Shown piece after piece: positions 4,739 through 64,000 of a stretch of DNA of 64,000 nucleotides (position 1 is its first letter; every line of letters starts with the position of its first letter). The DNA comes from Pyropia yezoensis. Its lineage: Eukaryota > Rhodophyta > Bangiophyceae > Bangiales > Bangiaceae. The stretch lies in contig CM020619.1 in NCBI GenBank assembly GCA_009829735.1, forward strand, positions 32,962,283-33,026,282, written 5' to 3'. The position numbers were made by a program, and so were the translations under genes. A model generated the notes under the pieces. The model had not been told where the DNA came from. It ran no database searches and worked only from the letters and a program-made list of their open reading frames with translations.

Positions 4739-5155
4739 AACAGTCAACCCCTCTTCATAAAGAGGCCAAGCGGGGTAAAACCACCGCCCCAAGGCCTCAC
4801 GCGGGACAACTTGTCCCGCCTCCGGGGGAGACCCCGCCGTCAACCCAAAGCCGGGTGACGCGGGAGTCCCATCCCCCGGCGCGATCGCGGAGCCCCCGCC
4901 GGAAGTCCCGGCGGGTGCTGCACCGTAGAAGGTGTCCTCCATGCGCTCGTCAAGAGAGTCCGTCTCCTCTCCCGGAGTCGCCATGACTCTCCCCAAGTTG
5001 GGGAGAGACGCTCTGGCTATCGCAGCACGAGACCCGCCTCGAGTTGAGGGGGACTCGGATCGTGGGTATACGGGTGGCCTCCCCAGCGTGGGGCGGCCCA
5101 GTGGAAGGTGAAAAGGAGGTGGTGGTGATGGTGAAGTGTGAACTGAGGAGAGCAA
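3041..5155 (-). CDS. Antisense ORF (aORF) of family 1, intact 704 codons
   Basis: A long ORF on the strand opposite to gag-pol, between the pol stop (2929) and the polypurine tract (about 5309-5322). Only 111 bp separate the two convergent ORF ends. The first Met is at 5155; an inner Met at 4984 (MATPGEETDS) is the alternative start. The protein has a Pro/Ser/Gly-rich N-terminus, a central region with no family I recognise (blocks RFGSVM, HLPLRLIQ, LHKFIEWESI), and a C-terminal Arg/Ser-rich tail (RRRRRHSRRSP, then Ser/Glu-rich) resembling an SR domain. The frame is shared with copies B and E. Plant Ty3/gypsy elements with antisense extra ORFs are known, but I cannot assign a function. Under the nesting model this intact frame is a chimera: residues encoded at 3041-4738 belong to copy A and those at 4739-5155 to copy B's flipped end. 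Confidence 0.75.
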   Translation of the reverse strand: MLSSVHTSPSPPPPFHLPLGRPTLGRPPVYPRSESPSTRGGSRAAIARASLPNLGRVMATPGEETDSLDERMEDTFYGAAPAGTSGGGSAIAPGDGTPASPGFGLTAGSPPEAGQVVPREALGRWFYPAWPLYEEGLTVLRCGRLGAAMGRVWDRLREKYPRRVGFPAGFRTDQFAFLDDEEVEDVQRAKAMVDRGGTVPGPGDLPTFKWDAVATRPPYLHEADPHTHHFDVRMEKDFRRGPYLVTSAQLEYPQQSAASKEQYYPKKPEWWPQVEVPYGFPALLPRLLDRFGSVMLTAAPDHLVWAMLATQWLLEVMSTWVCCVQRRGMLWHLPLRLIQGLEQLTSQLVAEGCSSGQLTLLEEMLRLHKFIEWESIDHKLRRPTRGPKDDGALRQFVWVARELHDGRVVLREGLGIGDYPYAPGVDRHTAPPPDKPIVMAVPSYDDHVTQPTAGAPSRGRSYTRVPPPRRAPPLPPVPFQPHGNIPISVAVESSTPVSPNLGATLLTVYPKLVLPPTPLTSEMMITTLVRTISWLAASTATLQSSETPQLEERVRTAVATASCESVAEFMTAELARIGAIMPQPAPLGRGKRRASRAYSPPRRRRRHSRRSPSVSEDELSYSVSESSTPSETESVQRLRRKLARKTRQKSGHGRRHLRDREGRDGSDLEPPPPPTSGDRYRRGSRRSPPREGEGRGVGESSMRA

Positions 5156-5308: not shown

Positions 5309-5322
5309 TGAGGAGAGGGGAG
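5309..5322 (+). promoter_or_regulatory. Polypurine tract before the LTR
   Basis: A purine-rich run (TGAGGAGAGGGGAG) directly abuts the TGTGGCAG start of the LTR. It is the expected plus-strand primer and is conserved before the LTRs at 14705 and 47716. Confidence 0.6.
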
Positions 5323-5791
5323 TGTGGCAGTATTGACCCCCAGGTAGGGGGGCAACATGTGCCATGCAAGGGGCGGCAGGCCACTAGCCTGATCCGTTCC
5401 TCCCCCTGCATTTGGGTCCATATTCCCTAAGTTTGGGATAGTTAGCTTAGTAGTAAATCCAACTTGGATTTGAGGGTTTTCTGCATTTATCGTCTTGAAT
5501 TTTCGTGTGGCCCGGTGGGCAGGTGCTGGGGTGGGAGATTCTGAGTGGCGAGATTCTGAGTGGACCCTGGGGGGATAAGGGGAGGGACAGCGGGGCTTGG
5601 CCCTGCGTCCCCGTCCCGACCAAGAAACTGTTGGACCACACACCATCTTCTTGTTTGTCCGTGGGGGGTTTGCCCCACAACAGGGACAGAGTGTGTGCGA
5701 CTTGCACTTCTTCCGGTTCCCCCGACACGGGAGGCAGCCCTGGCACACCGCCCCAACTTGGGTGCCGTGTGTGCTTGTGGTTTTTGCCACA
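5323..5791 (+). repeat. Family-1 LTR (L1), 469 bp, + orientation
   Basis: It begins TGTGGCAG and ends TTTTTGCCACA, so the 7-bp ends TGTGGCA/TGCCACA are inverted repeats. At the sites I compared it agrees with the LTR at 13647-14115 against the LTR at 14705-15172 (for example CTTGTGG versus CTAGTGG near the 3' end). This pairs it with copy B's other LTR although its orientation is opposite. Confidence 0.9.
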
Positions 5792-7489
5792 CTTCGCTGT
5801 GGCCGACTTGGCGCAGCGATGGGCCGGGTATGGGACCGCCTACGGGAGAAGTATCCCCGTAGGGTCGGGTTCCCTGCCGGCTTCAGGACGGACCAGTTTG
5901 CCTTCCTGGACGATGAGGAGGTTGAGGACGTCCAACGTGCCAAGGCCATGGTGGACCGCGGGGGAACTGTCCCGGGTCCCGGCGACTTGCCGACCTTCAC
6001 GTGGGACGCTGTGGCAACTCGCCCACCGTACCTCCACGAGGCCGATCCGCACACTCATCACTTCGATGTGTGGATGGAGAAAGACTTCCGGCGAGGTCCC
6101 TACTTGGTGACCTCGGCTCAACTTGAGTATCCTCAACAGTCTGCTGCCAGTAAGGAGCAGTACTATCCGAAGAAGCCCGAGTGGTGGCCTCAAGTTGAGG
6201 TCCCCTACGGGTTCCCGGCGTTGTTGCCCCGGTTGCTTGACCGCTTCGGCTCCGTCATGTTGACGGCTGCCCCTGATCACCTGGTGTGGGCCATGTTGGC
6301 CACCCAGTGGCTCCTCGAGGTCATGTCGACCTGGGTGTGCTGTGTTCAGCGGCGGGGGATGCTCTGGCATCTCCCCCTCCGGCTCATCCAGGGTTTGGAA
6401 CAGCTCACCTCTCAGCTAGTTGCTGAGGGGTGCTCATCAGGACAACTCACTCTACTTGAGGAGATGCTCCGGCTCCATAAGTTTATCGAGTGGGAGAGCA
6501 TTGATCACAAGTTGCGCCGCCCCACTCGTGGGCCCAAGGACGATGGCGCACTTCGCCAGTTCGTGTGGGTCGCTCGTGAACTTCACGACGGCCGTGTGGT
6601 CCTACGAGAGGGGTTGGGCATCGGGGACTACCCGTATGCCCCGGGGGTGGATCGCCACACTGCGCCACCCCCGGACAAGCCCATAGTTATGGCCGTGCCG
6701 TCCTATGATGACCACGTGACTCAACCCACTGCGGGGGCCCCAAGTCGGGGTCGCAGTTACACCCGGGTACCGCCACCTCGGCGGGCCCCTCCGCTTCCTC
6801 CTGTTCCTTTCCAACCTCACGGGAACATCCCGATCAGCGTGGCCGTGGAGTCTTCCACCCCGGTGTCCCCCAACTTGGGGGCCACCCTCCTGACGGTATA
6901 CCCCAAGTTGGTGTTGCCGCCCACGCCTCTAACCTCAGAGATGATGATCACCACGTTGGTGCGCACCATTTCCTGGTTGGCCGCGTCGACCGCAACCCTA
7001 CAGAGTTCCGAGACTCCTCAACTTGAGGAGCGCGTTCGTACTGCAGTAGCGACCGCGAGTTGCGAGTCGGTGGCGGAGTTTATGACAGCCGAGTTGGCTC
7101 GTATTGGGGCTATTATGCCCCAGCCAGCCCCACTTGGGCGTGGCAAACGTCGCGCGAGCCGGGCATACTCGCCTCCTCGCCGTCGTCGCCGGCACTCTCG
7201 GCGCTCTCCCTCCGTGTCGGAAGACGAGTTGTCTTACTCCGTCTCGGAGTCCTCTACCCCGTCGGAGACGGAGTCTGTCCAGCGTCTGCGTCGCAAACTT
7301 GCGCGCAAGACCAGGCAGAAGAGTGGCCACGGTCGGCGCCACTTGCGCGACCGTGAGGGGCGCGACGGCTCCGACTTGGAGCCGCCGCCCCCTCCAACAA
7401 GTGGAGACCGTTATCGGCGTGGGTCTCGCCGCTCGCCTCCACGTGAGGGCGAGGGCCGTGGAGTGGGAGAGTCTAGCATGCGTGCCTAG
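5792..7489 (+). pseudogene. Antisense ORF of copy B, separated from its N-terminus
   Basis: This is the same coding sequence as the intact aORF (3041-5155), here on the + strand because copy B is reversed. The first 139 codons are cut off at 5792, where the sequence joins the end of LTR L1. Read-through from the LTR gives an open frame from 5597, but those first residues are LTR sequence. The rest is uninterrupted to the stop at 7487-7489, including the Arg/Ser-rich tail. Under the loop-inversion model the missing N-terminus is the flipped piece at 4739-5155. Codons 7190-7300, compared with copy E (45623-45733), differ at 13 bases, nine of them third positions, which supports translation of this frame in the family's past. 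Confidence 0.75.
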
Positions 7490-10529: not shown

Positions 10530-11584
10530 CCATCCCACAGCTTGTGATATTGGTCCAAGAGGCGTTCAACTTGAACCCTCAACCTGGGGGGAACACCCTC
10601 CATGTTCACATGGGGCCGAGGAGAGGTGGCCGACTTGGCTTGATGCTTCTCCTTTCCGGACTTCGGGTCGCTACTTGCGCCCGCGTTGAGGGTGACCGCT
10701 ACTACCGGTCCCTCATGTTGGTCGATATAGCCGAACTTGGCTCCCGACTTGAAGTACTTGGGAGTCGGGCTCAGGTTCATCACCTGGATCCTCCACGGGA
10801 CTCCGGCTTTGGAGTCCATCGTGCCAAGGGCAACATGCACTTGGTGCTTGCGAGCAAGACGGGGGTGAGGGTGCACCAACCCGTTCCCCGTAAAATCAGT
10901 TACAACATCAACGTGCGCCACCGAGTTGGGGGGCAACGTGACTTTGCGGGCTAAACGCAGGGTAGCAGTAAACCCTTCCCTCACCGAACAAACAGGCTTC
11001 GACAGTGAGACTGTCACAGGAGCCACAGACTTTCCCTTACCAAGGATGGGGATAGTCTCCCCATTCATCAACTTGACCCAGTACTCGGGGCCACAGATCA
11101 AAGGCACTTGTTTTACGACATAAGGGGTACCCAGAAGCAGGGGTACCGATATATTCTCAACTACACCATAGGTCACGTCGACCTCATGGGTCCCCAACCT
11201 AGTTGGTAGGGTCACGGCACCAACGATGGGAAGTACCCCACCATTGATGTCAATCATATGGTCAGCTTTGGACCTCCAGCGTTGGAGCTTCACCTCCTTT
11301 GGTAATAGCGACTTGCGTATCAAGGAGGCTCCTGACCCGGTATCAAGCACGATACGGGCACAACAGGCGCGGCCGGGGGCAAGTTGCACCCGTCCAGCCA
11401 CCTGGAAGTTCTCACCCGTCAGCACCGCGATGACCCGACGTGGGTTTACGTTCTTGGGGAGTCCTACCCGAGGTGGGCGAACTCCCTTAGGTCGCCGCAG
11501 TATCCGGCACGGTTGGTTCGTCCTCCTGGCCCACTTGGCCGAGGCTGCCGTTGTGAGCTTCGGACGACCAGCCCCAACGGTCAT
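7601..11584 (-). pseudogene. pol: Pol polyprotein of copy B, one nonsense codon
   Basis: A 1,327-codon frame (PR-RT-RNaseH-IN-chromodomain) interrupted only by TAG at 9872-9874, where copies A and E have a Leu codon just after EVEY. The aspartic protease motif is LDTGSGASLI. RT carries YLDDIIVFS, and the HHCC and D,D,E integrase motifs match copy A. The start ATG (11584-11582) overlaps the gag stop TGA (11583-11581) as ATGA. There is no gag-pol fusion frame, so pol translation probably depends on termination-reinitiation. With the stop, the copy would make a product truncated inside RT, so it is probably defective in cis but could be mobilised by other copies. Confidence 0.9.
11581..11584 (-). 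promoter_or_regulatory. gag-pol ATGA overlap
   Basis: The pol ATG and the gag TGA share two bases, so pol is in the -1 frame relative to gag. The same overlap is kept in copy E at 41339-41342. Such overlaps permit ribosomes to terminate and restart; no slippery heptamer was noticed at this junction. Confidence 0.6.
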
Positions 11585-13551
11585 TCGTTTCCCGCCGACT
11601 TGGCGTCCGAATCTGAGGGCGGGGAGGAAGACGACGAGTCCGAGGACGACGAGTCCGCCTCCTCCGCCGAGGGTGTGGCGACCGCGACGACCGGTCGAGA
11701 CCCACCCTCGCGGCGTGAACGTACTTCGTTCGTAGCCGACTTTTTACTCGCATTCCTAACAAGTTGTTGGATGCGTTTACTCAACTTGGGGCAATCATAT
11801 GCCCAGTGTCCATCGGAGTTGCAGTTCCAACACCGATGGTCAGTTCCCGGAGGGGTCTTCCCAACTGGGGAAGACGAAGAGGTACCCTGGGAAGTTTCCA
11901 CGGCAGCTACCACCCTCTCCTTGCGGATTCGGCGTGCCTCTCTCAACTCTCTGGCCTGGCGCGCCTCCTCCCGTTCCTTGGCCAACTCGGCCTGACGCTC
12001 CTGGCGTTGTTCCTCCCGCAACTTGCGGTAGGCCTCGCCTCTGCGATAGGCGAACCTGGCCAACTCGGCCAGGGTCGCCCGGGCAGTGTTATGCTCCCGG
12101 GTCTCCATCCGGACTGACCAATGGAGTCCCTCCACAAACCGACTCTTCACCACAGCTTGTGGATGAAGAAACCCACAAAGATTGTTGAGCTTACGGACTC
12201 GCTCCGCAAAGGACAACTCGTCCTCCGCCTCTTCCTGATGGGCTTGCGTAAACTCCTCCACTTGAGAAGCCAACGCTGCCTCATCAACCATGGCTCTCAA
12301 CAACCAGTTGACGAGCTCCAAATAGGACGTCACCTCCCCAGCGCCTCCACTTGAGGAGCTGGGCATGACGGACATAAGTTCTGTCCGTAGGTCGCCCTTC
12401 GTAAACTCCTGTAGCATGTAAAAAGCCATGCCATCACTTATGGCATTGTCGTCACAGGCTTTTTTGAAACGACGTAGGAACTCAAAGACACGGAGGGGGG
12501 GAGTTCCGTCCCACTCCGCTTTGTGCCCAAAAGAATGAAGTGCATTCTTCTTGGCACGGCCCATGGCTCGGGCCTGGTCAGGACCATACGCCACCGACTT
12601 GTTGTGGAGAGCGTAGGTCTCACAGTCAAAGATCCTCTGGTAGACCGGGTTGGCTACCTGGATCTTGGGCGGCACCCCACGTTGAGGGAACAGCCGCTGT
12701 GGCACTGGGGTAAGTTCACTCTCAGTGCCTGTAGTCCGGCGCGGCGCGCTTGGTGTAGCCGCCGGCGTTTCCGGGGGGAACTCCCCCATGAAGGGCGTAC
12801 GCCCCACCGAGTATGGTGTGGCTCCCTCGTTGGGAGTCACAGGTGTCGCCCCCAGTTCGGGGCGACCCGAGAAAGGCGTGGGGAGGGATTCCCCCTCCGC
12901 CTGTGGGCTCGAAAGCCCCAATCCGGTCTGGACATTAAGGTCATCTGGCAAACTCGCCACAATCTGATTCAGAATAGTATTCGTCATCGTGACCACCAGG
13001 TCCGGCAAAGTCTGCCGCAACACATTGGTCGCCTCCCGACGGACAGTTTCCGCGAGGAGTGGATTGACGACTCCAGTTGAGTCTCGGTCCGCCTCCGGGA
13101 GTCCACCTGAGGGGTAACCACGTTCCTCAGGAGTCTCAACCGGGGGCATGAGCGCGAGCCCATCGCCGACCAACGGAGGTCCACCGTCCTCCGAAAGCCT
13201 AGTTGGCGACGACTCCAAGCCAAAGTTGGCTCCAACCCGAGTGGAACCCGCGGGGACAGTCCTCACCCCTTGGGACGTTCCCGTTGAGTATACCACGCGG
13301 TGGCCAGACTTCGGCCTACCCACATCAGAAGTGTCACCCGAGTGAACTCCCGACTGAGTCGGGGTGGCCTGTTGCCCGCCCGTACTTCCAGTCCTGCTGG
13401 CTTGAGGGACCTCTAGTCCCTCTGCGACCCCAGGTAGACCCACCTGTGTCTCACCAGTATTCAAAGGCACTGAAGTACGTGCGTCACCCGTGTACTCCCC
13501 GGACGACGGGGGGTCCGAGCTAGCCATGTTGGCTGACGATCCGTATGACAC
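11581..13551 (-). CDS. gag: Gag polyprotein of copy B
   Basis: A 656-residue protein. The N-terminal 270 residues are Pro/Thr/Gly-rich and low in complexity. The capsid-like region (about 300-480) contains the block VFEFLRRFKKACDDNAIS. A charged, probably coiled-coil stretch of Arg/Glu/Ala repeats (about 530-570) follows. A CCHC zinc knuckle, CWNCNSDGHWAYDC (C-x2-C-x4-H-x4-C), lies near residue 590, and an acidic Ser-rich tail ends the protein. Gag would form the virus-like particle and bind the genomic RNA. Two Met codons, at 13551 and 13527, are candidate starts and both are kept in copy E. The gene lies 95 bp downstream of the LTR and overlaps pol by four bases. Confidence 0.9.
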   Translation of the reverse strand: MSYGSSANMASSDPPSSGEYTGDARTSVPLNTGETQVGLPGVAEGLEVPQASRTGSTGGQQATPTQSGVHSGDTSDVGRPKSGHRVVYSTGTSQGVRTVPAGSTRVGANFGLESSPTRLSEDGGPPLVGDGLALMPPVETPEERGYPSGGLPEADRDSTGVVNPLLAETVRREATNVLRQTLPDLVVTMTNTILNQIVASLPDDLNVQTGLGLSSPQAEGESLPTPFSGRPELGATPVTPNEGATPYSVGRTPFMGEFPPETPAATPSAPRRTTGTESELTPVPQRLFPQRGVPPKIQVANPVYQRIFDCETYALHNKSVAYGPDQARAMGRAKKNALHSFGHKAEWDGTPPLRVFEFLRRFKKACDDNAISDGMAFYMLQEFTKGDLRTELMSVMPSSSSGGAGEVTSYLELVNWLLRAMVDEAALASQVEEFTQAHQEEAEDELSFAERVRKLNNLCGFLHPQAVVKSRFVEGLHWSVRMETREHNTARATLAELARFAYRRGEAYRKLREEQRQERQAELAKEREEARQARELREARRIRKERVVAAVETSQGTSSSSPVGKTPPGTDHRCWNCNSDGHWAYDCPKLSKRIQQLVRNASKKSATNEVRSRREGGSRPVVAVATPSAEEADSSSSDSSSSSPPSDSDAKSAGNE

Positions 13552-45433: not shown

Positions 45434-47548
45434 CTAGGCATGCATGCTAGACTCTCCAACCCCACGGCCCTCGCCCTCACGAGGAGGCGAGCGGCGAGAC
45501 CCACGGCGATAACGCTCCCCACCAGTCGGCGGGGCCGGCGGCTCCAAGTCCGAACCGTCGCGCCTCTGACGTTCGCGCAAGTGGCGACCACCGCGGCTAC
45601 CCTTCTGCTTGGTCTTGCGCGCAAGTTGGCGACGCAGACGCTGGACCGACTCCGACTCTGATGGAGTAGAGGACTCCGAGACGGAATAAGACAACTCGTC
45701 GTCCAATACGTAGGGAGAGCGCCGCGAGTGTCGGCGACGATGGCCAGGGCGCGAGTATGCCCGGCTCGGCCGACGTTTGCCACGCCCAAGTGGGGCTGGC
45801 TGGGGCACAATAGCCCAGATGCGAGCCAACTCGGCCGTCATAAACTCCGCCACCGACTCGCAACTCGCGGTCGCCACCGCAGTACGAACGTGCTCCTCAA
45901 GTTGAGGAGTTTCGGAAACTTGAAGGGTTGCGGTCGACGCGGCCAACCAAGAAATGGTGCGAACCAACGTGGTCATCATCATCTCTGAGGTCAGAGGCGT
46001 GGCCGGTAACACCAACTTGGGGTAAACCGTCAGAAGAGTGGCCCCCAAGTTGGGGGACACCGGGGTGGACGACTCAACGGCCACGCTGATGAGGATGTCC
46101 CCGTGCGGCTGGTAGGGGATAGGAGGAAGCGGAGGGGCACGCCGAGGTGGCGGTGCCCGAGCGTAACTGCGACTTCTACTCTGGGCCCTCGCAGTGGGTT
46201 GAGTCATATGGTCATCGTGAGAGGGCACGGCCATATTTATGGCCTTGTCCGGGGGCGGCGCAGTGTGGCGATCCACCCCCGGGGCCTGCGGTTAGTCCCC
46301 GATGCCCAGCCCCTCTCGTAGTACCACACGGCCGTCGTGAAGTTCACGAGCGACCCATACGAACTGGCGAAGTGCGCCATCGTCCTTGGGCCCTCGGGTG
46401 GGGCGGCGCGACTTGTGCTCGATGCTCTTCCAATCGATGAACTTGTGGAGGCGGAGCATCTCCTCAAGTAGAGTGAGTTGTCCTGATGAGCACCCCTCAG
46501 CAACTAGCTGAGGGGTGAGCTGTTCCAAACCTTGGATAAGCCGAAGGGGAAGATGCCAGAGCATCCCCCGCCGCTGGACACAAGACACCCAGGTCGACAT
46601 GACCTCGAGGAGCCACTGGGCTGCCAAGATGGCCCACACCAGGTGATCCGGGCTAGCCGTCAACATGACGGAGCCGAAGTGGTCGAGTAACCGTGGTAGC
46701 AATGCAGGGAACCCGTAGGGGACCTCAACTTGAGGCCATCACTCGGGCTTCTTGGGGTAGTACTGCTCCTTACTAGCAGCGGACTGCTGCAGAAACTCAA
46801 GTTGAGCCGAGGTCACCAAGTAGGGACCTCGCCGGAAGTCCTTCTCCATCCGCACATCAAAGTGATGAGTGTGCGGATCGGCCTCGTGAAGGTACAGGGG
46901 GCGAGTTGCCACTGCGTCCCAAGTAAAGGTCGGCAAGTCGCCGGGACCCGGGATGGTTCCCCCGCGGTCAACCATGGCCTTGGCCCGCTGTACGTCTTCG
47001 ATTTCGTCATCGTCCAGGAAGGCAAACTGGTCCGTCCTGAAGCCGGCAGGGAACCCGACCCTACGGGGATACTTCTCCCGAAGGCGGTCCCATACCCAAC
47101 TCATCGCTGCGCCAAGTCGGCCACAGCGAAGAACAGTCAACCCCTCCTCATGTAGAGGCCACGCGGGGTAAAACCACGGCCCCAAGGCCTCACGTGGGAC
47201 GACGCGGCCCGCCTCCGGGGGAGATCCCGCCGCCAACCAAAAGCTGGGTGACGCGGGAGTCCCATCCCCCGGAGCGATCGCGGAGCCCCCGCCGGAAGTC
47301 CCGGCGGGCGCTGCACCGTAGGAGGTGTCCTCCATACGTTCATCAAGAGAGTCAGTCTCCACCCCCGGGGTCACCATGGCTCTCCCAAAGTTAGGGAGAG
47401 ACGCCCTGGATGCAGCGGCACGAGACCCGCCACGAGTTGAAGGGGGCTCGGATCGTAGGTAGATGGGTGGCCTCCCCAGCGTGGGGCGGCCAAGGGGAAG
47501 GTGAAGGGGATGTGTTGGTGATGGTGAAGGGAGAACCGGGGAGAGCAA
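45434..47548 (-). pseudogene. Antisense ORF of copy E with two nonsense codons
   Basis: The 2,115-bp antisense frame is colinear with the intact 704-codon aORF at 3041-5155. It is split by a Trp-to-stop change (TGG to TGA) just before 46739 and a Tyr-to-stop change (TAC to TAA) just before 46292. Conserved stretches include the SLDERMEDTS block, RFGSVM-type (HFGSVM here), HLPLRLIQ, and the Arg/Ser tail with DELSYSVSESSTPS. Compared with copy B over 37 codons (45623-45733) there are 13 differences, nine at third positions, arguing that the protein was selected before this copy decayed. It lies between the pol stop (45322) and the polypurine tract at 47702-47715. Confidence 0.8.
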
Positions 47549-50450: not shown

Positions 50451-50819
50451 TTGAGCAATATGGTTGACCGTATTGTGACGCTGTGACCCTATATTAGGGG
50501 GCTACCTCTAACCATTAACTTTCAATTTGGGAGTCCGTACTGGTCACGGTATCTATAAGTTACGTATGACCAGAGGGACCTGCATCTTGGGGTGGAGGGT
50601 AGTTAGTGGTGTCTCCGAGGGTTTATAACGAGGGGGCCGGCGGCGAATCCACCGCCGGCCAAGGTAGAACAACAAACCCCTCCCATTTGGGCTCCCATCT
50701 TGGTCCCGTGGCTTGCGCTCCAAGGACAGCAACCTTGGCCTCCCGGTGACGTTAGTGCCGATCCCCCTTGGTGAGTGTTCCCTGAGAGTGGACGTGAAGC
50801 GGATACCTATTGTGCTACA
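50451..50819 (+). repeat. 5' LTR of copy F
   Basis: Aligns with 59400-59762. The first bases are altered (TTGAGCA for TGTAGCA), the end is TGCTACA. It has a short extra segment (GCTGTGAC) near the 5' end relative to the 3' LTR. Confidence 0.8.
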
Positions 50820-50839: not shown

Positions 50840-51038
50840 GGGTTTCCGTCACCCTTGTGGTGACGCCGTCTTCGGCCCTGGCACACGGATCGGGATACGG
50901 TCCTTTTCTTGTACTCGTGGTGCTGCGATCTGGTTGATTGTTTTGAGTGGTTGCGTTTGACTTCGATCTACGGTTACTCTGCCCCAACAACCCCCTCGCT
51001 CTCTTATTCGTGGTGACCGTTACGTCGGTTGACTGATT

Positions 51039-51820
51039 GTGACTGTGTCTACCCAAGAGACGGGGAACGTTCAAGATGACAGATCGGCGTCGACGCCGAC
51101 CCCGGAGCTGAACCCGGGAACCGGGATCGGTAACCCGATCGACAACATTGAGACGCCGATGCTGTCCGGCGCCGGATCGACGTTTTGTACGGCACGTACG
51201 GCCGGGGGCGGCGGACCGCCGCGACTGTCTTCTGCCGGCCTCACGCCGCCGCCACCTTCACCAGGGGACTCTCTGATGGCATCATTGGCTCGCAACGAGG
51301 CCCGGTTAACCGGGCTCGACGCCCGTCAAGAGCGTACGGAGGACGCAATGGCTGTGCTGATGTCAGCACGCCACACGACGGTACCCCGTCGTGTTCCTCC
51401 CACACCGGTACGGTTCGAACCGACCGGACTACTCTCGGAGTCCACCAGGGTCGACCCCGGTGTTGCTACTCCTGGACAACCCCCGGACACGGCGGGTTAT
51501 GGATCCGACTCGTCGGCCGAGTTGGAACGTAGCTATACGGAGCGCTACGCTCGGAGCACCCAGAGCGGGCTCTGCGGACATGGTCCGGCGGATGCATGCT
51601 GTGCGGAGACCCCCAACACTGGGTGTCCCCATGCCCGCTCATCCCGGAGGAGTCTCGACGGGCAGCGGCGCAAGGCAAGGCATCCATTGGGGATTATCCC
51701 GCCAGAGGCCCGGCACCGGGTAGGCAGCAAGCTCCAGGAGGATTGCTGGCAGTCGAGGAGGCACCTCCTCTCCCGGATATCCCGGAAGATAGTACCCGGC
51801 CGAGTACGGGAAACGAGTAA
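51039..51820 (+). pseudogene. gag: gag of copy F, frameshifted and probably internally deleted
   Basis: From the ATG at 51039 a Pro/Thr/Ser-rich N-terminal part with an EARLTGLDARQERTEDA helix runs to about 51540. A CCHC zinc knuckle (CMLCGDPQHWVSPC, C-x2-C-x4-H-x4-C) is encoded in another frame at about 51593-51634, followed by a tail ending in a stop at 51818-51820. The capsid domain expected between them is absent, so the gene has lost it through deletion with a frameshift. At 782 bp it is far shorter than gag of family 1 (1,971 bp). Such a gag cannot build particles unaided. Confidence 0.7.
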
Positions 51821-51987
51821 GAGGAAGGACGACACGGGGTCGCTGGGGTAACCCTAGCAAGCCACCCCGGACTGCCGCGGGGAAAGCCCCGCGGAGAGCG
51901 TGGTTTAGCCGACGCCGCATCAACCGCCGGGTACACCTTCCGGCTCCGACGACACGGCGTCAGGGGATTGATGACCAACCTCCAAGG

Positions 51988-54900
51988 TTGGGAGGAAAGG
52001 ACGGGAAGCCCCGTCACTTGGAACCAGGCAAGGGCCCTGTTCAGGATGCCCGAGCTACACCGGATATCGGTGTAGGCCACGTACTGTTCACCTTGGAGAA
52101 ATTCAAGGTATCAGCCACACTGGGGGTTGACCCCCAGTCGACCCGATCGTATTACTCTGTACTGGATACAGGGGCTGGACCTAACCTGATACGGGAGGAT
52201 ACCCTCCCGGACAAGTGGCTCCCGCGAGTCAGAGTTGCTCGGGGACCCACGATCAAGGATGCGAATGGTCGTCTTATTCGTACGACCGCAGCGATGTCGC
52301 TGCGGGTCACCATCGGGGAGCTCACGACGGAAGTTGACTTCCTGGTGTGTGAGACTCTATCTGTGCACTGCATACTGGGGTGCACCTTCATCAACTTTCA
52401 CGTTGATGCAGTCCGGCCGGGCCGGAGGACCGTCGAGCTGCAAGAGGCCGACGGAACGAAGCGAGGACAGACAGCTATCGTCAGGGACCTGACGCTAAAA
52501 GGGATCCACGTTAACGTGGCTGAGGTATACGCCAGCGTAGAACCGAAAACACTCCGGCTGGCCAAGCGGACTCGCTTTGAGCCGTTATCGGAGACCGTTC
52601 TCCCGGTTAACTGTGACCTCGCAGGCATCTGCAGAGTCCAGTCCAACCTACGAACCTACAAGCGCCATGGGTTGACCATGGCCAACGGTATCGTAGACCT
52701 CCCAGCGGGGGGGTCATCACTGCTTGTGATGGCGAACTATCGCCGTAAGGCAGTCACCCTTCCGAAAGGATTTATCCTCGGGATTGCCGAGCTCTACGAA
52801 GGAGACATCCTTACCCCTGACAAGGAAGGTCAAGTGGAACCACTTGAGCTACTGGCGGTCGCCGAGACCACCGAGCTGCAGCAACCCGATAACGGGAAGC
52901 CTAACCCATCAACAGCTCCGGCGGACATTCCGCCAAAGGACCAAGACGCCTTGAAGGCACTGGCCGAGGCTGACCTCAACCATCTTCCCCCTTCGGTAGC
53001 TGAAGGGGTACGACGGATGTTAAGAAAGCATGACGTCATGTGGACCGGCGGGGCGCTGGGTACCATTGGGGCAACCAACACCGTTTAGACCTCGTACCAG
53101 GTGCACGACCAGCGCGGTCGCAACCGCATCGCGCAGGACCTATGCAACGAGAGGTCATTGATGGAGAAGTGAAGAAGATGAGCGAAGCTATGGTGATCCG
53201 ACCTTCGATGTCGGAGTGGGGCGCCCCAGTCGTTATCGTACCGAAGAAGGATCAAACCCCTCGGTTTTGCATCGATTATCGACGCCTCAACTTGGTTACC
53301 AAGAAAGACTCATACCCGTTACCAAGGATGGACGAGTGTATCGATTTCCTGGGGGAAGCCACAGTGTTTACCACTATCGACTGCAATGCCGGGTACTGGC
53401 AGATCCCAGTTGCGGAGAAGGATATCCCCAAAACGGCGTTCGTCTGTCACAGTGGCGTGTACGAGTTCTTAAGGATGCCCTTCGGATTGTCCAACGCCCC
53501 CGCCACATTCCAGCGGGCCATCGACATTATACTGTCGGGAGGCAAGTGGCGTAACTGCCTGGTGTACCTGGACGATGTCATCGTCTTCTCGCGTAACATG
53601 GATGACCATGTGCAACATGTCGACGAGGTACTCACCCTCTTGTGGAACGCCGGGGTGACCCTGCGCCTCAAGAAGTGCGCCTTCTTTCAACAGACCGTCG
53701 AGTATCTGGGTCACCAGATCACACCAGGTAAACTGGGAGTGCTCGAAGCCAATACCCGGGCACTCCGGGATGCGCGATACCTAACCACCCAGACACAGCT
53801 GAAAAGCTTCCTGGAGATGTGCAACGTATACCGACGGTTCGTCAAGGACTTCGCTCGTATAGCCAAACCGTTAACGGTTCTGACGAGCAGCGCCTTGCCA
53901 AAGGTACTCCAACCTCCCTCGCCCAGCGAGGGAGAGGCATTCGAGCTGCTCAAGCAAGCCCTGCTAGCCCCACCCGTGCTTGCGTTGCCGCATAGACGCG
54001 GGACCTTCGTCATCGACGTCGATGCCTGCGATACCCAAGTGGGATGCACCCTGTTACAGGGAGAGACCATCATCGGTACCGATAATGCTATCCCGGACCT
54101 ACATCCGGTGGGGTACTTCAACCGGACACTCAACCCGGCTGAGCGTAACTATAGTGCCACCGAGCGCGAGTGCCTCGGAGTCATATGTGCAGCGCAACTG
54201 CTCCGGTCATACCTGGAAGGTTCCACGTTCATCGTGAGGTCCGACCACGAACCTTTACGATGGCTTCTCAACCTTGGTGACAAGGATTCCGACAGCCACG
54301 GTCGGCTAGCCCGGTGGAGGCTGAAGATGGCCGAGCACAACTACCGGACCATATATAAGGCCGGCTCTACCCATTATCTGGGGGACGCGCTGTCGCGACT
54401 CGATACACCTAGCGGGGATACCCGACAGGTGGACGAGGACATCCCGGTTGTACCGGTTTGCATGGTAGGTAATGCCACCCAAGGTATGGTTGACCATACC
54501 ATGGCACACCTTGCAAGCCCATTGACCCTCGCGGACTTCCGCGAGGCACAGGCCAATAACGATGACTGTAAACGCCATCGTGCTAACCTCCTGGCCGGCA
54601 CGGCCGGCATCTTCTCCGAGAACGAGGAAGGCCTCATATACCGGCGGGCACCCGCCGATGGACGGCATGAAGTCGTGGTTCCCGTGTCCCTAGGACAAGC
54701 CGTCATGGAACGAGAACACGAGAACCCCACAGCCGGACACCCGGGGGGTTCACGCATGTTCGCAGCAATGCGAAGGTTCTTCTACTGGCCAGCAATGGCG
54801 GTTGACGTAATCAACCACGTCCGGGGATGCTACCCGTGTGCACGGAATCGCATGAGTCTTCATAAGCGGGCATCCGCTATGAAACTGTTCCCCCCGGATG

Positions 54901-55994
54901 GACCCAACGAGAAAGTCGCTATCGAAGAACTCGGGCCGCTTCCGGTAACGGAAGAAGGGAACAGGTACATCCTGGTCAAGTCGGACCGCTTTACGAAGCT
55001 GTCACGGGCAGTAGCAATCCCGAACGATACGGCCTACACCATCATGAACGCAGTGGTTGACCACTGGATCAGTGCTTACGGAGTAATGAAGCAACTCCTC
55101 TCCGATAACGGAGCAAACCTTACGTCAGTATTCTGCACTAAAGTCCTGGGCATGTTCGGTATCGAACCCCGTCGGGCATCCGACTACCACCCGCAATCCA
55201 ACGGGCAGGTGGAGCAGTTCAACCGCACCATCGTCAAGATGCTCCAATGCTATGTGGCAGAGCACACGAAGACGTGGGACAGGCTTCTGTCCGTCTTGAC
55301 CCCGGCATAAAATGCCAGGCCCCACCGGAGTACCAGCATTGCCCCACTGGAATGGGTCATGCCGATGGGCGTCGGTAACCTGACGCTGCCACCGGGCAGA
55401 TGCACTCGGTATGATATACCGAAGGGCCGACCGGCCGAACGGATCCACTTAGCTTGGTTGGCCAAGCTATCGTGGATGATGCCCAAGCTCAAGGGTGCCA
55501 TTGACCGTACACAACTTCGATACAAGAAGAACTTTGACGCCCGGCTACGGGTACGCAACGCAACCCTGGTAACAGGTGACTGGGTCTACATCAGACACCA
55601 GAAGTTCCGAGGGAACAAGCTTATGCAACCGATCAAGGGACCGTACCAGATCTTACACAGAGATGATCACTCTGTCATCCTGCAATCCGATACGGAGATA
55701 CAACGCATCAACCTCAATGATGTGACACCTGCTCCGAAGCCGGAACAGCCTCAGCCGGTACCGGCTGGGTTGCTACATGAAGCTCTAACAACCCACCGGT
55801 CAGATGACCCGGTGGGACCGGATGGGATTCCATACCAAGTAGAGAGCGTGGTCGGACACACCGACCCGGACCTACCAGGACCCTGGTACGTCAAGGTGAT
55901 GTGGGTCGGATACGACTCACCCACCTGGGAACAGGCGGCGAACTTTCCCCGCCAACTTCTCATGCTTTACATGAGGCGACGACGCCTACTGTAA
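51988..55994 (+). pseudogene. pol: pol of copy F, one frameshift and one nonsense codon
   Basis: Protease (LDTGAGPNLI) occupies the first frame, 51988-53088. A 1-base loss near 53080 shifts the frame, and RT (YLDDVIVFS), RNase H (VIDVDACDTQVG, RSDHEPLRW), the HHCC domain and integrase follow in 53040-55310. A TAA at 55308-55310 replaces a Tyr codon, after which the same frame continues to 55994 with a chromodomain (VGYDSPTWEQAANFP). The integrase block IEELGPLPV carries Glu where family 1 has the first catalytic Asp (MDILGPLPV); the SDNGANL Asp and QVEQFNRT Glu are kept. Both the broken frame and the missing Asp argue that F is immobile on its own. Confidence 0.88.
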
Positions 55995-56445
55995 CAACCC
56001 AACAGACACCGACTTCGGCTGTTGGGGGGTGAGGCTTATACCTACCAAGTAGGGTGTCACATGGATTCGGCAAGACTTAGGTTCACTAAGTGGGAGCGGA
56101 CTTAGGCACACTAAGTAAGCGACTGACTTTTACAATTTTACTTGAAGGAGATGACTAACTCCGATAATTTCGAAGTAACCTGCGGCTTACACCAATGTAA
56201 ACCTTCATCCATGGGGCAAGTGACGGACCAAGGAAGGTTGACCTTCATGAGTATTCACCAACCAGGATGGGTTGGGGGGCGCGAGAAAGAACCGAGGCAG
56301 GCCACGGCTAAGTCAGACGGGGTACTCCCCAAAGGCAGGCATTGGTATCACGCAAACGCCCCAGCGGGGGATGAGTTTATACTCACTACTACCCGGCCAC
56401 CATAAGGGTCACCGGGTCCCTCTCCCTCACAAACAATAGCACTCC
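55995..56445. other. pol-aORF interval of copy F with two hairpins
   Basis: Lies between the convergent 3' ends of pol (+) and the antisense ORF (-). ACTTAG/CTAAGT hairpins with 5-nt loops occur at 56075-56091 and 56100-56116. They could serve 3'-end formation for one or both transcripts (inference). No coding frame of note. Confidence 0.45.
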
Positions 56446-58914
56446 TCAGTGGGTAGACCCGCTGCCCGAGGGAGGCCACTCCCGCGTAAGCGCGTACACC
56501 TCCATGCTCCACCGGTCGGCAATCTCGCGACGGTCAATCGCCCGAGTTACCTCGGTGCATAGCTGGACGAGGGTGGGGCGGCCAGCCTTCACGTCCTCCA
56601 GAGCTCTCTGGAGGCGGTCCAGCACGCCACCGAAGCAACGCGCGGACCCAACCAGCGCAGCGCCTGGGGGGATATCCCCCCAGCTAACAGAGAGACCCTG
56701 CCGCATCTCGCGGGCGATGAGGGCGTCAACGCCCTCATACCAGAGACGGGGACCCCCGTCACGCATGACAGGGGCGGAAGGTGACACTGGCGCAGCCAGA
56801 GGAGCCACAGGAGCCGACACGGCTACCACCGGAGCCGGTGGCGCCTGATACGAGGCCCGGTAGGACCCCACTGAAGGGGCTCCACCGTAAACCCGGCGGG
56901 GCTCCGCCCGAGGACGGGACACCTCACGCCCCCCACCCGCAGAGTCCCACTCTCGGGGACGACGGCCAACCGCCACCGGTATCGGGTTACCGAACCACGG
57001 GGCGAGGATCTGAAGAGGGTCATGGATAACCATGGGAATACCCAGGTCAGGAACAGCCTCGGTGGACGCCCACCCACGGCAATTGGGCTCACCCGGCTGA
57101 GTACGCCGGATACGCAACGAGTGACGAGGCAAGGGGGCAGCCCCTGCCTGCGGGTCCCGGTACGGGGGAAGGGCCAACACCCCAGCCCAGTTCACGGCAT
57201 CGTGAACGGCCAGCAGGGCCTCGAACTCCCGGGCCAACCCGGTCTTGGCAGCTATCATGTCCACGCCCAGCTGCCCGATATGCCGACGGACACCCGTCGG
57301 AAGATGAGACAGGCGCCCCTGCCGGCGGACGGACAGCAAGAAGGAGGAAGTCTGCCCGAAGGTAACCTCAAGGGTAAAGGTCCCCTGCAACGGGTGGACC
57401 GGCCGAGATGCCAACACACTCCCGAAGTATCGGAGACAGGAGCCGGTGTCAAACCGGAAAGCAGGGGCGGGTTCACACCCCTCCTGCCACAGAGGCGGGC
57501 ACACGGGAGTGTACACCGGCGCGTGACCGTTACCGGTCTGCAACGCACACGTTATATCGGTGCGGAACGCATCCGCCATGACACCATGGTTGCGTCGCCA
57601 ACTAGACGCCGACTTCAACCCCGCCATAGGCGGGTACGGAGCCGTCAACGTCAGATACGGGGATACCCCCGGGAAGTACTCAAACCCGGGATACCGGCCG
57701 GTATCGCCCACCGTCCCCCCAAACGCCACCGGCTCCGCCGCCGCCGCAACCCCCCGAGCACTAGCCGGGTAGTCAACCTCCCGCGGCAACGCGGGGGCAA
57801 CCAAGTCGCATACCCCGAAGGCGAAGTCGAGGAAGACTTCACCCCGCCCCACCCGGGTGCGCCAGAGCTGCGCACGCCGGTCGTCCGGCTGACTCAGGAC
57901 CCAATGATGTTCCACCCGGACCGCGTTCGGCTGGTTGACCAGCCGCACCAACTCCCGCTCCCAACTCGGGTCCACTTTGACGCGCCGGGAGGACTCCCCA
58001 CGGTGACGCGGCTGGTGGAAGTCCATCCGCATCCGCCCAGCGGAGTCCATAAACTCCTGCACAGTGAAGCCTCGAACCCGAGCCACCAAGTCAGACATCG
58101 ACATGGCGGGTTGACCCGCCGCCAAGGCGACGCCGCCACCCAACGGAGCAACCCGGGCGGGACCAGGAAGAATCGGGGGCGCCGGGGGAAGCCCCACCGG
58201 CAGATGGGCCGGTGCCGTAGGCGCACGGGGCCGAGGAGGAAGAAGAAGGGCGGGCGCCCGCTCGGAGTAGCTCCCGGAGTCCACCGCCATCGGGGAAGAC
58301 ACGTCTTGACCACCAATCACCCGCGGCACCGCGGGCAGAGCATCGCCGGCACCCGGGCCCGACGTGGGCACCACGGGGACGAAAGGGGTAGACCCGTTAC
58401 CCGCCGCCACGGACACACCACCAACCGGGCGGGCACCCGCACCATCTTGACCCGCCGTCCCGGCCGAGGTGCCGCTACGACCGTCCGACACACCGGCGGC
58501 GCCGTCGTGAGGCAGAGCCGCGCCGGCACCGGCGGCAAGAGCCATCTGGGTCGCCGGAGGAGTAGGAGTAGGGGCAGCCGCTACATGCGGTGGACCGCCA
58601 CCCGACGGAGCCGTCGTGCCGCTGCACACGGACGACAATCCGCCCGGCGCGCCTTCCGGGGCCACACGGACGGTTACCCGGTCGTCTTCGTCCGACGAGC
58701 TCGCCAGGAAGCCCTCGGCAGCGGTGGCGGAGACGGGAACGTCGTCCTGCATCACCTCCTCCTCCTCAAGCAGGAGGTCGTCCTCGCCCCCGGGTACCTG
58801 GGGGTCCGACATGGTGGAGCCGGGGTAGCAGGGGCGCCCTGTGCCAACAAGCCGCAGCCGGCTCGACCCGGTAAAACGAACGCTCGCGCGGACGAGCCAG
58901 GGAAGCGCGGACAC
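56446..58914 (-). CDS. Antisense ORF (aORF) of family 2, intact 822 codons
   Basis: A long uninterrupted frame on the strand opposite to gag-pol, between the pol stop (55994) and the polypurine tract (about 59388), the same place and orientation as in family 1. The first Met is at 58914; an inner one at 58812 (MSDPQVPGGEDD) starts an acidic stretch and may be the true start. After a Pro/Ala/Gly-rich N-terminal third there is a globular region of about 400 residues, then a C-terminal helical part. It shares ordered blocks with the family-1 protein: FGSV, then GRLSHLP (GMLWHLP in family 1), an IGQL helix, and HDAVNWAGV (HKFIEWESI in family 1); upstream, GGTVGDTG (GGTVPGPG). It lacks the Arg/Ser tail. 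This frame stays open although gag and pol of the same copy are broken. No known domain recognised. Confidence 0.75.
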   Translation of the reverse strand: MSALPWLVRASVRFTGSSRLRLVGTGRPCYPGSTMSDPQVPGGEDDLLLEEEEVMQDDVPVSATAAEGFLASSSDEDDRVTVRVAPEGAPGGLSSVCSGTTAPSGGGPPHVAAAPTPTPPATQMALAAGAGAALPHDGAAGVSDGRSGTSAGTAGQDGAGARPVGGVSVAAGNGSTPFVPVVPTSGPGAGDALPAVPRVIGGQDVSSPMAVDSGSYSERAPALLLPPRPRAPTAPAHLPVGLPPAPPILPGPARVAPLGGGVALAAGQPAMSMSDLVARVRGFTVQEFMDSAGRMRMDFHQPRHRGESSRRVKVDPSWERELVRLVNQPNAVRVEHHWVLSQPDDRRAQLWRTRVGRGEVFLDFAFGVCDLVAPALPREVDYPASARGVAAAAEPVAFGGTVGDTGRYPGFEYFPGVSPYLTLTAPYPPMAGLKSASSWRRNHGVMADAFRTDITCALQTGNGHAPVYTPVCPPLWQEGCEPAPAFRFDTGSCLRYFGSVLASRPVHPLQGTFTLEVTFGQTSSFLLSVRRQGRLSHLPTGVRRHIGQLGVDMIAAKTGLAREFEALLAVHDAVNWAGVLALPPYRDPQAGAAPLPRHSLRIRRTQPGEPNCRGWASTEAVPDLGIPMVIHDPLQILAPWFGNPIPVAVGRRPREWDSAGGGREVSRPRAEPRRVYGGAPSVGSYRASYQAPPAPVVAVSAPVAPLAAPVSPSAPVMRDGGPRLWYEGVDALIAREMRQGLSVSWGDIPPGAALVGSARCFGGVLDRLQRALEDVKAGRPTLVQLCTEVTRAIDRREIADRWSMEVYALTREWPPSGSGSTH

Positions 58915-59387
58915 CCGCGCTTATGACCACACAGCTCAGCACGAGCGATACGGCAGCGCGGGACGACCCGCGCCAGACGAGCTACGAGGACGCTCCACCC
59001 AGGCACCTGGATCGAGGCCACGCCCCCCCACAGGGGGTAATCAAGGGGAGTCACCCCCAACCGCCCCCACGCAAGGCGGGCAGCCCCCGCCCCCCCCTCA
59101 ATCGTCCCGCGAGAGGGGCCCCCCGACCACCAGACGCCTGGTGGCGGATCCGCTTGCACCACCCCTCGGAAAGGGGGGTCGTGAACAACAGCCCGCATCG
59201 GGAATTCAACGGTCCGGAAAACGGATCGTGTGTGTACCACACAAAGGGGGGCACCCCCCTCAGACAACCTCGAAAAGGGGTGTCTGTCGCGACAGGGCGC
59301 AAAGCCCCACCCGACTGGTAAACGGTCACGCGACCCACTGACATTCGGAAACCGGAATGCAACTCGACCCGAGGACGGGCCGAATCT
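58915..59387. other. Region between aORF start and polypurine tract of copy F
   Basis: Should contain the promoter and leader of the antisense transcript. Short + strand frames (for example 58841-59341) are Pro/Arg-rich without domains. No clear TATA box. Confidence 0.35.
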
Positions 59388-59399
59388 AAGGGGGGGATA

Positions 59400-59762
59400 T
59401 GTAGCAATATGGTTGGCCGTATTGTGACCCTATTATTAGGGGGGCTACCTCTAACCATTAACTTTCAATTTGGGAGTCCGTACTGGTCACGGTATCTATA
59501 AGTTACGTATGACCAGAGGGACCTGCATCTTGGGGTGGAGGGTAGTTAGTGGTGTCTCCGAGGGTTTATAACGAGGGGGCCGGCGGCGAATCCACCGCCG
59601 GCCAAGGTAGAACAACAAACCCCTCCCATTTGGGCTCCCATCTTGGTCCCGTGGCTTGCGCTCCAAGGACAGCAACCTTGGCCTCCCGGTGACGTTGGTG
59701 CCGATCCCCCTTGGTGAGTGTTCCCTGAGAGTGGACGTGCAGCAGATACCTATTGTGCTACA
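59400..59762 (+). repeat. 3' LTR of copy F, 363 bp
   Basis: Begins TGTAGCA after the purine run, ends TGCTACA, and abuts transposase coding sequence of transposon H at 59763. Confidence 0.9.
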
Positions 59763-61096: not shown

Positions 61097-61129
61097 CCTT
61101 GCGGTAGCCGGCGGGGGCTCAGCAGCAGG

Positions 61130-62141: not shown

Positions 62142-62180
62142 TTGTGAAAAACTGGTGTCACTTGTGAAAAACTGGTGTCA
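62142..62180 (-). repeat. Right terminal motifs of transposon H, tandem pair
   Basis: TTGTGAAAAACTGGTGTCA at 62142-62160 and again at 62162-62180, the reverse complement of the left motifs at 48863 and (inner part) 49030. Confidence 0.6.
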
Positions 62181-62199
62181 GACGGATAGGTCACGAGAT

Positions 62200-62300
62200 C
62201 GGGCGTGCCCCAGGTGCCGGGCGTGCCCCAGCTGGTGCAGGTGCCGGGCGTGCCCCAGCTGGTGCAGGTGCCGGGCGTGCCCCACGTGCGAGGCGTGCCG
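62200..62300. repeat. 27-bp tandem repeat, nearly three units
   Basis: Units containing GTGCCGGGCGTGCCCC followed by AGCTGGTGCAG repeat head to tail, then degrade. Located just outside the right end of transposon H. Confidence 0.7.
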
Positions 62301-63080: not shown

Positions 63081-63116
<36 letters not shown>

Positions 63117-63959: not shown

Positions 63960-64000
63960 CTGCAAGGCAGCAAAGCGGGCAAGGGAATGGCAGGAGGGGG

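What the first reader, a model, noticed from the sequence alone, without database searches (positions are those of the whole stretch)
56446..58914. Two different chromovirus families carry an antisense third ORF, and the two proteins look homologous
Seen directly: family 1 (3041-5155 and copies at 5792-7489 and 45434-47548) and family 2 (56446-58914) both have a 2.1-2.5-kb ORF on the strand opposite to gag-pol, between the pol stop and the polypurine tract. The proteins share ordered blocks at similar spacing: GGTVPGPG/GGTVGDTG, RFGSVM/YFGSVL, GMLWHLP/GRLSHLP, a Gln-Leu helix, HKFIEWESI/HDAVNWAGV. Known: antisense additional ORFs occur in some plant Ty3/gypsy elements (for example Grande1, RIRE2), without an agreed function. 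Inference: this is an old component of an algal chromovirus lineage, expressed from its own promoter near the 3' LTR. No domain I know matches it.
Basis: partly seen in the sequence, partly recalled or inferred. Interest (0 to 1): 0.9.

Follow-up and report, generated by a model that had tools for sequence, protein, structure and literature searches.

The report
Antisense accessory gene in seaweed retrotransposons
Related retrotransposons in the nori seaweed genome carry an extra protein gene written backwards behind their normal genes; it is a real gene kept by selection, no known relatives were found, and its job is still unknown.

Summary
Confirmed and extended. The window's genome has contigs matching the Pyropia yezoensis chromosomes in size. 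The antisense ORFs are protein genes, not shadows of composition. In their own frame differences pile up at third codon positions (70.5% in family 1, 48.4% in family 2), with dN/dS 0.14 and 0.40. The overlapping sense ORF 57022-58926 is closed in 23 of 24 copies.

The two proteins are homologous: BLASTP E=2e-9; hhalign score 43.8 against at most 22.5 in 40 column shuffles; only the antisense frame pair matches significantly. I found a third family, closest to family 1 by pol, with the same antisense gene (846 aa; E=1e-43 to family 1, 4e-6 to family 2). Near-copies apart, I found no relative in Pfam, NCBIfam, PDB, viral or prokaryote contigs, or capped searches of 5.8 billion proteins.

Antisense accessory ORFs are known in plant Ty3 elements, so this is a new variant of a known kind. 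A second surprise: the three families are rich in short palindromes with family-specific core words (family 1: CAAGTTG, 60 in the window against 6.6 expected).

The parts
50454..50817 (+). 5' LTR of the family-2 element (limits approximate)
   Evidence: near-identical to the 3' LTR over 50498-50817; blastn from 50454 to the copy's own 3' LTR, 96% (L001)
51033..51851 (+). gag remnant of family 2; this copy lacks an internal stretch at ~51593 that other copies have
   Evidence: 40 of 41 places match only to about window 51593 and stop there, the 41st being the window itself; L018 gag reads on in a longer frame
51793..53088 (+). protease region of family 2
   Evidence: gag-asp_proteas PF13975 E=4.6e-7
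53034..55310 (+). RT, RNase H, integrase of family 2
   Evidence: PF00078, PF17917, PF17921; PF00665 below its cut-off
55311..55994 (+). integrase C-terminal part of family 2, pol stop at 55994
   Evidence: tblastn in 22 of 24 distinct family-2 loci, opposite in strand to the antisense gene in all 22
56446..58914 (-). antisense accessory gene, family 2 (822 aa from GTG; 788 aa from ATG at 58812)
57055..57963 (-). stretch used as the core of the family-2 antisense protein (residues 318-620); the part shared with families 1 and 3 lies within it
57022..58926 (+). overlapping sense-strand ORF: a shadow, not a gene
   Evidence: closed by 1-5 stops in 23 of 24 copies, open only in the window copy; its frame has dN/dS 1.1 ('- 0' row); no Pfam match
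59400..59760 (+). 3' LTR of family 2, preceded by the polypurine stretch AAGGGGGGGATA
   Evidence: and the sequence itself
5..2929 (+). pol of family 1 (cut by the window start)
   Evidence: RT, RNase H, integrase and a weak chromodomain match; 50% identical to family 2 pol
3041..5155 (-). antisense accessory gene, family 1 (704 aa from TTG; 647 aa from ATG at 4984)
5322..5794 (+). 3' LTR of this family-1 element (limits approximate)
   Evidence: inverted match to 13644-14116
5579..7489 (+). 5'-truncated family-1 antisense gene copy (on + because this element copy lies on -)
   Evidence: tblastn residues 107-675 at 5663-7399
11581..13551 (-). gag of the inverted family-1 copy: CCHC zinc knuckle, so gag is encoded in sense and the antisense gene is an extra
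   Evidence: PF00098 E=2.1e-5
45434..47548 (-). family-1 antisense gene copy broken by two in-frame stops
   Evidence: three ORF pieces
4987..5007 (.). example of a family-1 palindrome with the CAA-S-TTG core; such sites are dispersed through the element

Best explanation
A lineage of Ty3-type LTR retrotransposons in this red alga carries, besides sense gag and pol, a third protein gene on the opposite strand between the pol stop and the 3' LTR. SHOWN by sequence: it is protein-coding, under purifying selection, present in three families, and diverges in step with pol; gag is a separate sense gene. INFERRED: it is transcribed from its own promoter in the 0.3-0.6 kb between its start and the 3' LTR. 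INFERRED: its product is a nuclear accessory protein (acidic N-terminus, long flexible linker, one conserved core; in family 1 a strongly basic Arg/Ser tail) that acts on the element's own nucleic acid to favour its expression or replication. Candidate targets are the family-specific palindromes spread along the same elements. The stated confidence weighs the gene itself (about 0.95) and the role (about 0.35) together.
For: Coding: codon-position bias and dN/dS 0.144 (family 1, 10 copies), 0.398 (family 2, 24 copies), beside pol 0.176 (15 copies) and integrase C-term 0.229 (21 copies); in family 3, 23 of 36 differences between two copies are at third positions. The stretch behind the gene's stop is among the most diverged. 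Homology in the antisense frame only. Fixed place and orientation: 22 of 24 family-2 loci, 8 of 8 family-1 loci; for family 3, 5 of 8 integrase hits matched at profile positions 1-57 have the gene nearby, all 5 on the opposite strand. Protein divergence follows pol: families 1-3 pol 66%, antisense protein 29% over 454 aa; families 1-2 pol 50%, protein 24% over 230 aa; families 2-3 pol 46%, protein 25% over 249 aa. Gag is separate and sense. Basic tail in family 1 and no strong hydrophobic segment. Palindrome excess and family-specific words in the three families.
Against: Third-position excess is missing in the linker windows of family 2, and two windows in the 3' LTR show a similar phase share by chance. 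Family 2's dN/dS of 0.40 is weaker than its pol. Palindromes: family-1 ones show no extra conservation between two copies, no covariation beyond controls was seen in family 2, and window 15173-38800 outside these families also has a milder hairpin excess (74 against 41.5, shuffle maximum 59).
Confidence: 0.55

Rival explanations
1. The open antisense frame is a by-product of high G+C and of coding on the sense strand.
For: The region is 68% G+C and a 634-aa sense ORF overlaps it.
Against: That sense ORF is closed in 23 of 24 family-2 copies; the in-register sense frame has 10.4 stops per family-1 copy. The antisense frame has third-position excess, low dN/dS and cross-family protein similarity.
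Confidence: 0.02
2. The antisense transcript matters rather than the protein: it pairs with genomic RNA and regulates it, as proposed for some plant elements.
For: Any transcript of this gene would be complementary to 2-2.5 kb of the genomic RNA; the review PMC7264820 raises this option.
Against: Amino-acid sequence, not just RNA, is conserved within and between families. It may act as well as the protein.
Confidence: 0.1
3. An Env-like protein for cell-to-cell spread.
For: Position behind pol is where env lies in retroviruses (PMC7264820).
Against: Antisense orientation; best 19-residue hydropathy is 1.44 and 1.34. Signal peptides were not tested by a program.
Confidence: 0.04
4. A second structural protein or a packaging helper that binds the dispersed hairpins in the sense genomic RNA.
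For: Family 1 has an Arg-rich tail; family-2 tetraloops TTGA (7) and GCAC (5) lead on the sense strand, and GTTGAC in gag-pol is +8/-0.
Against: Gag with a CCHC knuckle is present in sense. Strand bias is not general: family-2 GGTTGA in gag-pol is +8/-8, GTTGAC in the gene half +3/-3, and family-1 core words are about equal on both strands. Compensatory changes do not exceed slid controls.
Confidence: 0.15
5. A host or foreign gene captured by the lineage and kept for a host-like function.
For: No relative was seen behind the pol of the one distant Ty3 element looked at (L037), so it may have been gained in the common ancestor of three families; but only about 0.86 kb behind that pol is visible before another element starts, so absence is not established.
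Against: No relative outside these elements in Pfam, NCBIfam, PDB, protein clusters or viral and prokaryote contigs, apart from near-copies P0004-P0006. The protein searches scored only about 8000 candidates each.
Confidence: 0.1

Closest known systems
Antisense additional ORFs (aORF-3R) of plant Ty3/gypsy elements: Grande gene23, RIRE2, Retand ORF4 (PMC7264820, parts 1-2 of 3 read; PMC11963269, abstract and passages seen)
   Same: Same place (between pol and 3' LTR), same orientation, conserved like other element proteins, function unknown.
   Different: Different protein: no TRP28 (PF04195) match. Host is a red alga. Retand is described as non-chromovirus, whereas family 1 here has a weak chromodomain match.
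VANC anti-silencing proteins of Arabidopsis VANDAL transposons (PMC5735166, passages seen)
   Same: Element-encoded accessory protein that diverges between families; each family carries its own over-represented short word.
   Different: The VANC21 motif is not palindromic, is arrayed in one orientation and lies mainly in noncoding tandem repeats. Here the words are palindromic, dispersed and (11 of 14 in the first family-1 element) in coding DNA, on both strands. No binding or demethylation data.
HTLV-1 antisense protein HBZ (named in PMC11963269, passages seen)
   Same: Antisense gene of a retroelement.
   Different: No sequence comparison made; the analogy is one of position and strand only.

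Membership tests
Antisense aORF-3R of Ty3/gypsy elements | ORF antisense to gag-pol between pol stop and 3' LTR | tested here: met
Antisense aORF-3R of Ty3/gypsy elements | present in most copies of the family | tested here: inconclusive
   pol end and gene side by side in 22 of 24 family-2 and 8 of 8 family-1 loci, but the loci were found through the antisense protein, so copies without it would be missed
Antisense aORF-3R of Ty3/gypsy elements | conserved as a protein about as well as other element proteins | tested here: met
   dN/dS 0.14 (family 1) and 0.40 (family 2) beside 0.18 for family-2 pol; family 1 as strong, family 2 weaker
Antisense aORF-3R of Ty3/gypsy elements | own promoter and antisense transcript (reported for Grande) | not testable with these tools
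   no transcript data held
Retand-type aORF with TRP28 | Pfam PF04195 | tested here: not met
   no match up to E 10 for the 6 members of A2 and for the family-3 protein
Chromovirus | chromodomain at the integrase C-terminus | tested here: inconclusive
   family 1 PF00385 E=7.4e-4, 19.8 bits, below the 25.1 cut-off; family 2 none at E<=0.1, though by eye its C-terminus resembles one
Ty3/gypsy LTR element | protease, RT, RNase H and integrase, in this order, between LTRs | tested here: met
VANC-like anti-silencing system | family-specific over-represented short DNA word | tested here: met
   CAAGTTG 60 in the window against 6.6 expected, 58 of 60 inside family-1 stretches; best shown for family 1, weaker for families 2 and 3
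VANC-like anti-silencing system | words in noncoding tandem arrays in one orientation | tested here: not met
   both strands, dispersed, mostly coding
VANC-like anti-silencing system | protein binds the word and removes silencing | not testable with these tools
   needs a bench assay
Env-like protein | membrane segment | tested here: not met
   hydropathy maxima 1.44 and 1.34 over 19 residues for families 2 and 1
Gag | zinc knuckle in this ORF | tested here: not met
   no match in the antisense proteins; a gag with a knuckle is separate, in sense

The most novel reading that the evidence does not exclude
The antisense protein and the dispersed palindromes form one self-recognition system: each family's protein reads its own palindromic word (family 1 CAA-S-TTG, family 3 CGA-S-TCG, family 2 a GTTGAC-type core), and protein and word change together as families split, marking the element's own DNA or RNA for activation, protection or packaging. 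This would be the first such system in an LTR retrotransposon that I know of (recalled; not searched in full).
Probability: 0.15. Interest if true: 0.88.

Novelty: new variant of a known kind. Interest (0 to 1): 0.64.

Why it matters
Antisense accessory genes of Ty3 elements have long been known in plants without a function (PMC7264820). Here is a protein without detectable relatives in the same place in a red alga, in at least dozens of copies per family, with selection strength that can be measured and with three diverged families to compare. That suggests the same solution arose more than once, and the family-specific palindromes give a concrete binding hypothesis that one in vitro experiment can test. 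The genome paper puts 48% of P. yezoensis in repeats, mainly LTR elements, and predicted genes on the repeat-masked genome (PMC7423979, passages), so such genes are probably missing from its annotation.

Tried and rejected
Shadow ORF: rejected by six-frame codon analysis. Antisense ORF as the missing gag: considered because the window copy of family 2 has little gag; rejected when other copies (L015, L018) and family 1 showed gag in sense, and the window copy proved internally deleted. RNA covariation: double compensatory changes in 24 family-2 copies did not exceed slid controls (7 cells against 3-14), so the hairpins are not supported by covariation. Palindrome conservation: supported in the family-2 gene (third-position divergence 0.050 inside, 0.096 outside, reached by 14 of 2000 shifts) but not in family 1 (0.174 inside, 0.141 outside; 1736 of 2000 shifts). 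Controls: L038 was first taken as an element without the gene; it turned out to be a third family whose gene is truncated in that copy. L037 is left, but only about 0.86 kb behind its pol is visible before a family-2 fragment begins, so 'no gene' is not established there; some same-strand integrase hits with such 1186-aa frames lie 5.7-6.2 kb apart, which would leave little room for the gene (inference). My notebook says more flatly that L037 has none; this report corrects it. The C-terminal helical stretch looked alike in three families by eye, but isolated stretches do not beat shuffles (913, 204 and 72 of 1000 reach the score), so I claim homology for the core only. Env: no membrane segment. 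Searches without a relative: viral contigs, prokaryote genome contigs, PDB (nothing better than E 0.33), NCBIfam for families 1 and 2. Rfam and tRNA scans of the window were empty.
Full report
WHERE THIS IS. The Pyropia yezoensis paper gives scaffolds of 29.4, 34.3 and 43.6 Mb for its three chromosomes (PMC7423979, passages). I take the host to be this red alga (nori); the match is by size only.

OBSERVATION. The ORFs exist as stated. 56446-58914 (-) is 822 codons from GTG with a more likely ATG at residue 35, followed by an acidic stretch; 3041-5155 (-) is 704 codons from TTG with a likely ATG at residue 58, again acidic. The other window copies of family 1 are a truncated one, one broken by two stops, and a fragment. 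A 634-aa ORF overlaps the family-2 gene on the sense strand, so the first question was which strand codes.

CODING STRAND. In 24 distinct family-2 loci the antisense frame has 48.4% of differences at third positions and dN/dS 0.398; over the gene's length the five other frames have 6.3 (the in-register sense frame, dN/dS 1.12) and 16-22 stops per copy. Under the 634-aa sense ORF itself, 23 of 24 copies have 1-5 sense stops; only the window copy is open. The antisense frame carries 0.42 stops per copy, but 19 of these 24 copies are stop-free and 16 were chosen so. In 10 family-1 copies (the eight best hits, L020 and the window copy at 45434) the antisense frame has 70.5% of differences at third positions and dN/dS 0.144; the five other frames have 10-24 stops per copy. 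The same method gives 0.176 for family-2 pol (15 copies) and 0.229 for the integrase C-terminus (21 copies). One reverse-strand frame of each set also shows a lowered ratio (0.50, 0.24, 0.27, 0.34), as expected where third positions coincide; each is closed by stops. The estimates are Nei-Gojobori sums over all pairs, without correction for relatedness or CpG. Along family 2 most windows inside the ORF show the third-position excess, but the first window and the linker (58464-58315) do not, and two windows in the 3' LTR show a similar phase share (52 and 49%), which I take as chance; the 300 bases behind the gene's stop are more diverged (0.12-0.14 against 0.05-0.10 in the gene). Dropping the observed changes at random gives 68 stops in 23 copies (47-91) against 10 seen. 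In the unpicked list of 55 scored copies I count 50 stops and 23 copies without any; that list holds the best-scoring copies only.

HOMOLOGY. BLASTP of the two proteins gives E=2e-9, 24% over 230 aa, with composition adjustment. Profile-profile alignment of the cores scores 43.8 (probability 81%, E=1.3e-5); 40 column shuffles reach at most 22.5 and the reversed profile 11.5. Of all six-by-six frame pairs only antisense by antisense is significant (E=2e-7, next 0.42).

A THIRD FAMILY. To find controls I searched the genome for the integrase zinc domain PF17921 and fetched two elements, L037 and L038. L037 (pol 29-32% identical to the others) shows no antisense relative, but only about 0.86 kb behind its pol is visible before a family-2 fragment starts, so absence is not established. 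L038 looked empty too, but its pol is 66% identical to family 1, and behind it lies a 274-aa antisense ORF next to tandem repeats. Searching with that ORF gave 144 places, many in frames of 665, 846 or 900 aa. One such copy, L039, encodes 846 aa stop to stop, with E=1e-43 to family 1 (29% over 454 aa) and 4e-6 to family 2. Core scores are far above 1000 shuffles: families 1-3 399 (maximum 67), 1-2 111 (68), 2-3 91 (57). Two family-3 copies differ at 9, 4 and 23 first, second and third positions. A core query gives 137 places, fragments included, with one 52% relative and 12 rows at 36-38%; at least one of these 12 is a family-1 copy listed and six have its frame length of 724. The FGSV, HLP and H-W blocks are kept in all three families; the GGTV block is not kept in family 3.

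ANATOMY. Gag is encoded in sense: family 1 has a 656-aa gag with a CCHC knuckle (PF00098), and family-2 gag frames are visible in L015 and L018. The window copy of family 2 lost an internal gag stretch. In 22 of 24 family-2 loci and 8 of 8 family-1 loci the integrase end lies beside the antisense gene on the opposite strand; two family-2 loci (L006, L020) lack it. For family 3, of 8 integrase hits matched at profile positions 1-57 (taken as this family because L038 is one of them), 5 have the gene nearby, all opposite, and 3 do not. Gaps between pol stop and antisense stop are 112, 452 and 131 bases. The protein has an acidic N-terminus, a Pro/Gly/Ala/Ser linker (long in family 2), a core of about 250 residues and a variable C-terminus, strongly basic in family 1. 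No membrane helix stands out. No Pfam match for either protein at E<=0.1 or for family 3 at E<=10; in a scan of the 6 members of A2 up to E 10, one member hits DUF6214 at E=0.014, which I take as chance. No NCBIfam match for families 1 and 2; PDB best E 0.33.

RELATIVES ELSEWHERE. Three searches of 5.8 billion proteins found only three near-copies (P0004-P0006, 84-95% identical). Viral and prokaryote contigs gave nothing. No other algal genome is held here.

SECOND OBSERVATION: PALINDROMES. Reading the family-1 sequence I noticed CAAGTTG again and again. It occurs 60 times in the window against 6.6 expected (largest shuffle 13), 58 of them in family-1 stretches; 20 in the 9.4-kb copy at 38808-48184 against 1.2, on both strands about equally. 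Many sit in perfect palindromes with different arms. Hairpins with arms of 6 or more and loops of 3-6, observed against expected: family 2 gag-pol 54 against 7.3 and gene half 34 against 6.1; family-1 first element 16 against 3.4 and 22 against 4.0; family-1 copy C 19 against 7.6 and 14 against 3.5; L038 20 against 4.8; L037 6 against 3.7; window 15173-38800 74 against 41.5 (maximum 59); window 59761-64000 11 against 7.2. So the excess is strongest in these families but not confined to them. Family 2 favours even centres, family 1 odd ones. Family 3 favours CGASTCG and CGASTCA. The words of families 1 and 3 differ by a symmetric change in both half-sites. In family 2 the top word, GGTTGAC (11 against 1.6), is not clearly beyond the top word of L037 (6 against 0.57). 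Against a simple reading: no covariation beyond controls, and conservation inside palindromes in family 2 but not family 1. A 0.9-kb piece of the family-2 gene folds better than 20 shuffles on both strands (z -3.3 and -3.1).

INTERPRETATION. The gene is a third gene of this lineage, probably present before the three families split. Its spread, conservation and separate strand argue for a trans-acting accessory role. The mechanism I think most likely is a nuclear protein acting on the element's own nucleic acid; the palindromes are candidate targets. That step is inference, at about one chance in three for the general role and 0.15 for the specific self-recognition reading.

LITERATURE. [quoted passage not shown] In Retand 97% of clusters encode TRP28 (PMC11963269, abstract and passages). 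I saw no report of such a gene in red algae in the searches (listings and abstract beginnings only; open-licence papers only) or in passages of the Ectocarpus transposon paper PMC12477816. The VANC comparison rests on passages of PMC5735166.

VERDICT. Observation confirmed; homology and antiquity within the genome confirmed and extended; promoter and function open. New variant of a known kind.

Noticed in passing
window 1-15172, 38808-48587, 49915-50450 (family-1 stretches): Dispersed 7-base word CAAGTTG/CAACTTG, often at the centre of perfect palindromes with variable arms: 60 in the window against 6.6 expected, 58 of them in these stretches.
   Followed up: partly
window 50454-59760 (family 2): Large excess of short perfect hairpins, mainly even-centred; tetraloops TTGA 7 times and GCAC 5 times on the sense strand.
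   Followed up: partly
L038 and L039 (family 3): Own enriched words CGASTCG and CGASTCA, differing from family 1's word by a symmetric change.
   Followed up: partly
window 15173-38800: A milder hairpin excess (74 against 41.5 expected, shuffle maximum 59) outside these element families, with G+C-rich cores.
   Followed up: no
window 51593: Internal gag deletion in the window copy of family 2: the other 40 of 41 places match only up to about this point.
   Followed up: yes
L038:3942-5560: Family-3 antisense gene truncated in this copy, with tandem repeats where other copies have its core.
   Followed up: partly
window 59496-60962 (-): 488-aa stop-to-stop frame running into the family-2 3' LTR that by eye resembles a DDE transposase; no family search was made.
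   Followed up: no
window 1-15172: Family-1 elements lie head to head as a near-perfect inverted repeat (1-4738 and 5792-10529, 99%), with further LTR pieces at 14704-15172.
   Followed up: no
G000, PF17921 matches: Several other Ty3 families with long pol frames (for example 1186 and 1255 aa), some on one strand at about 6-7 kb spacing.
   Followed up: no
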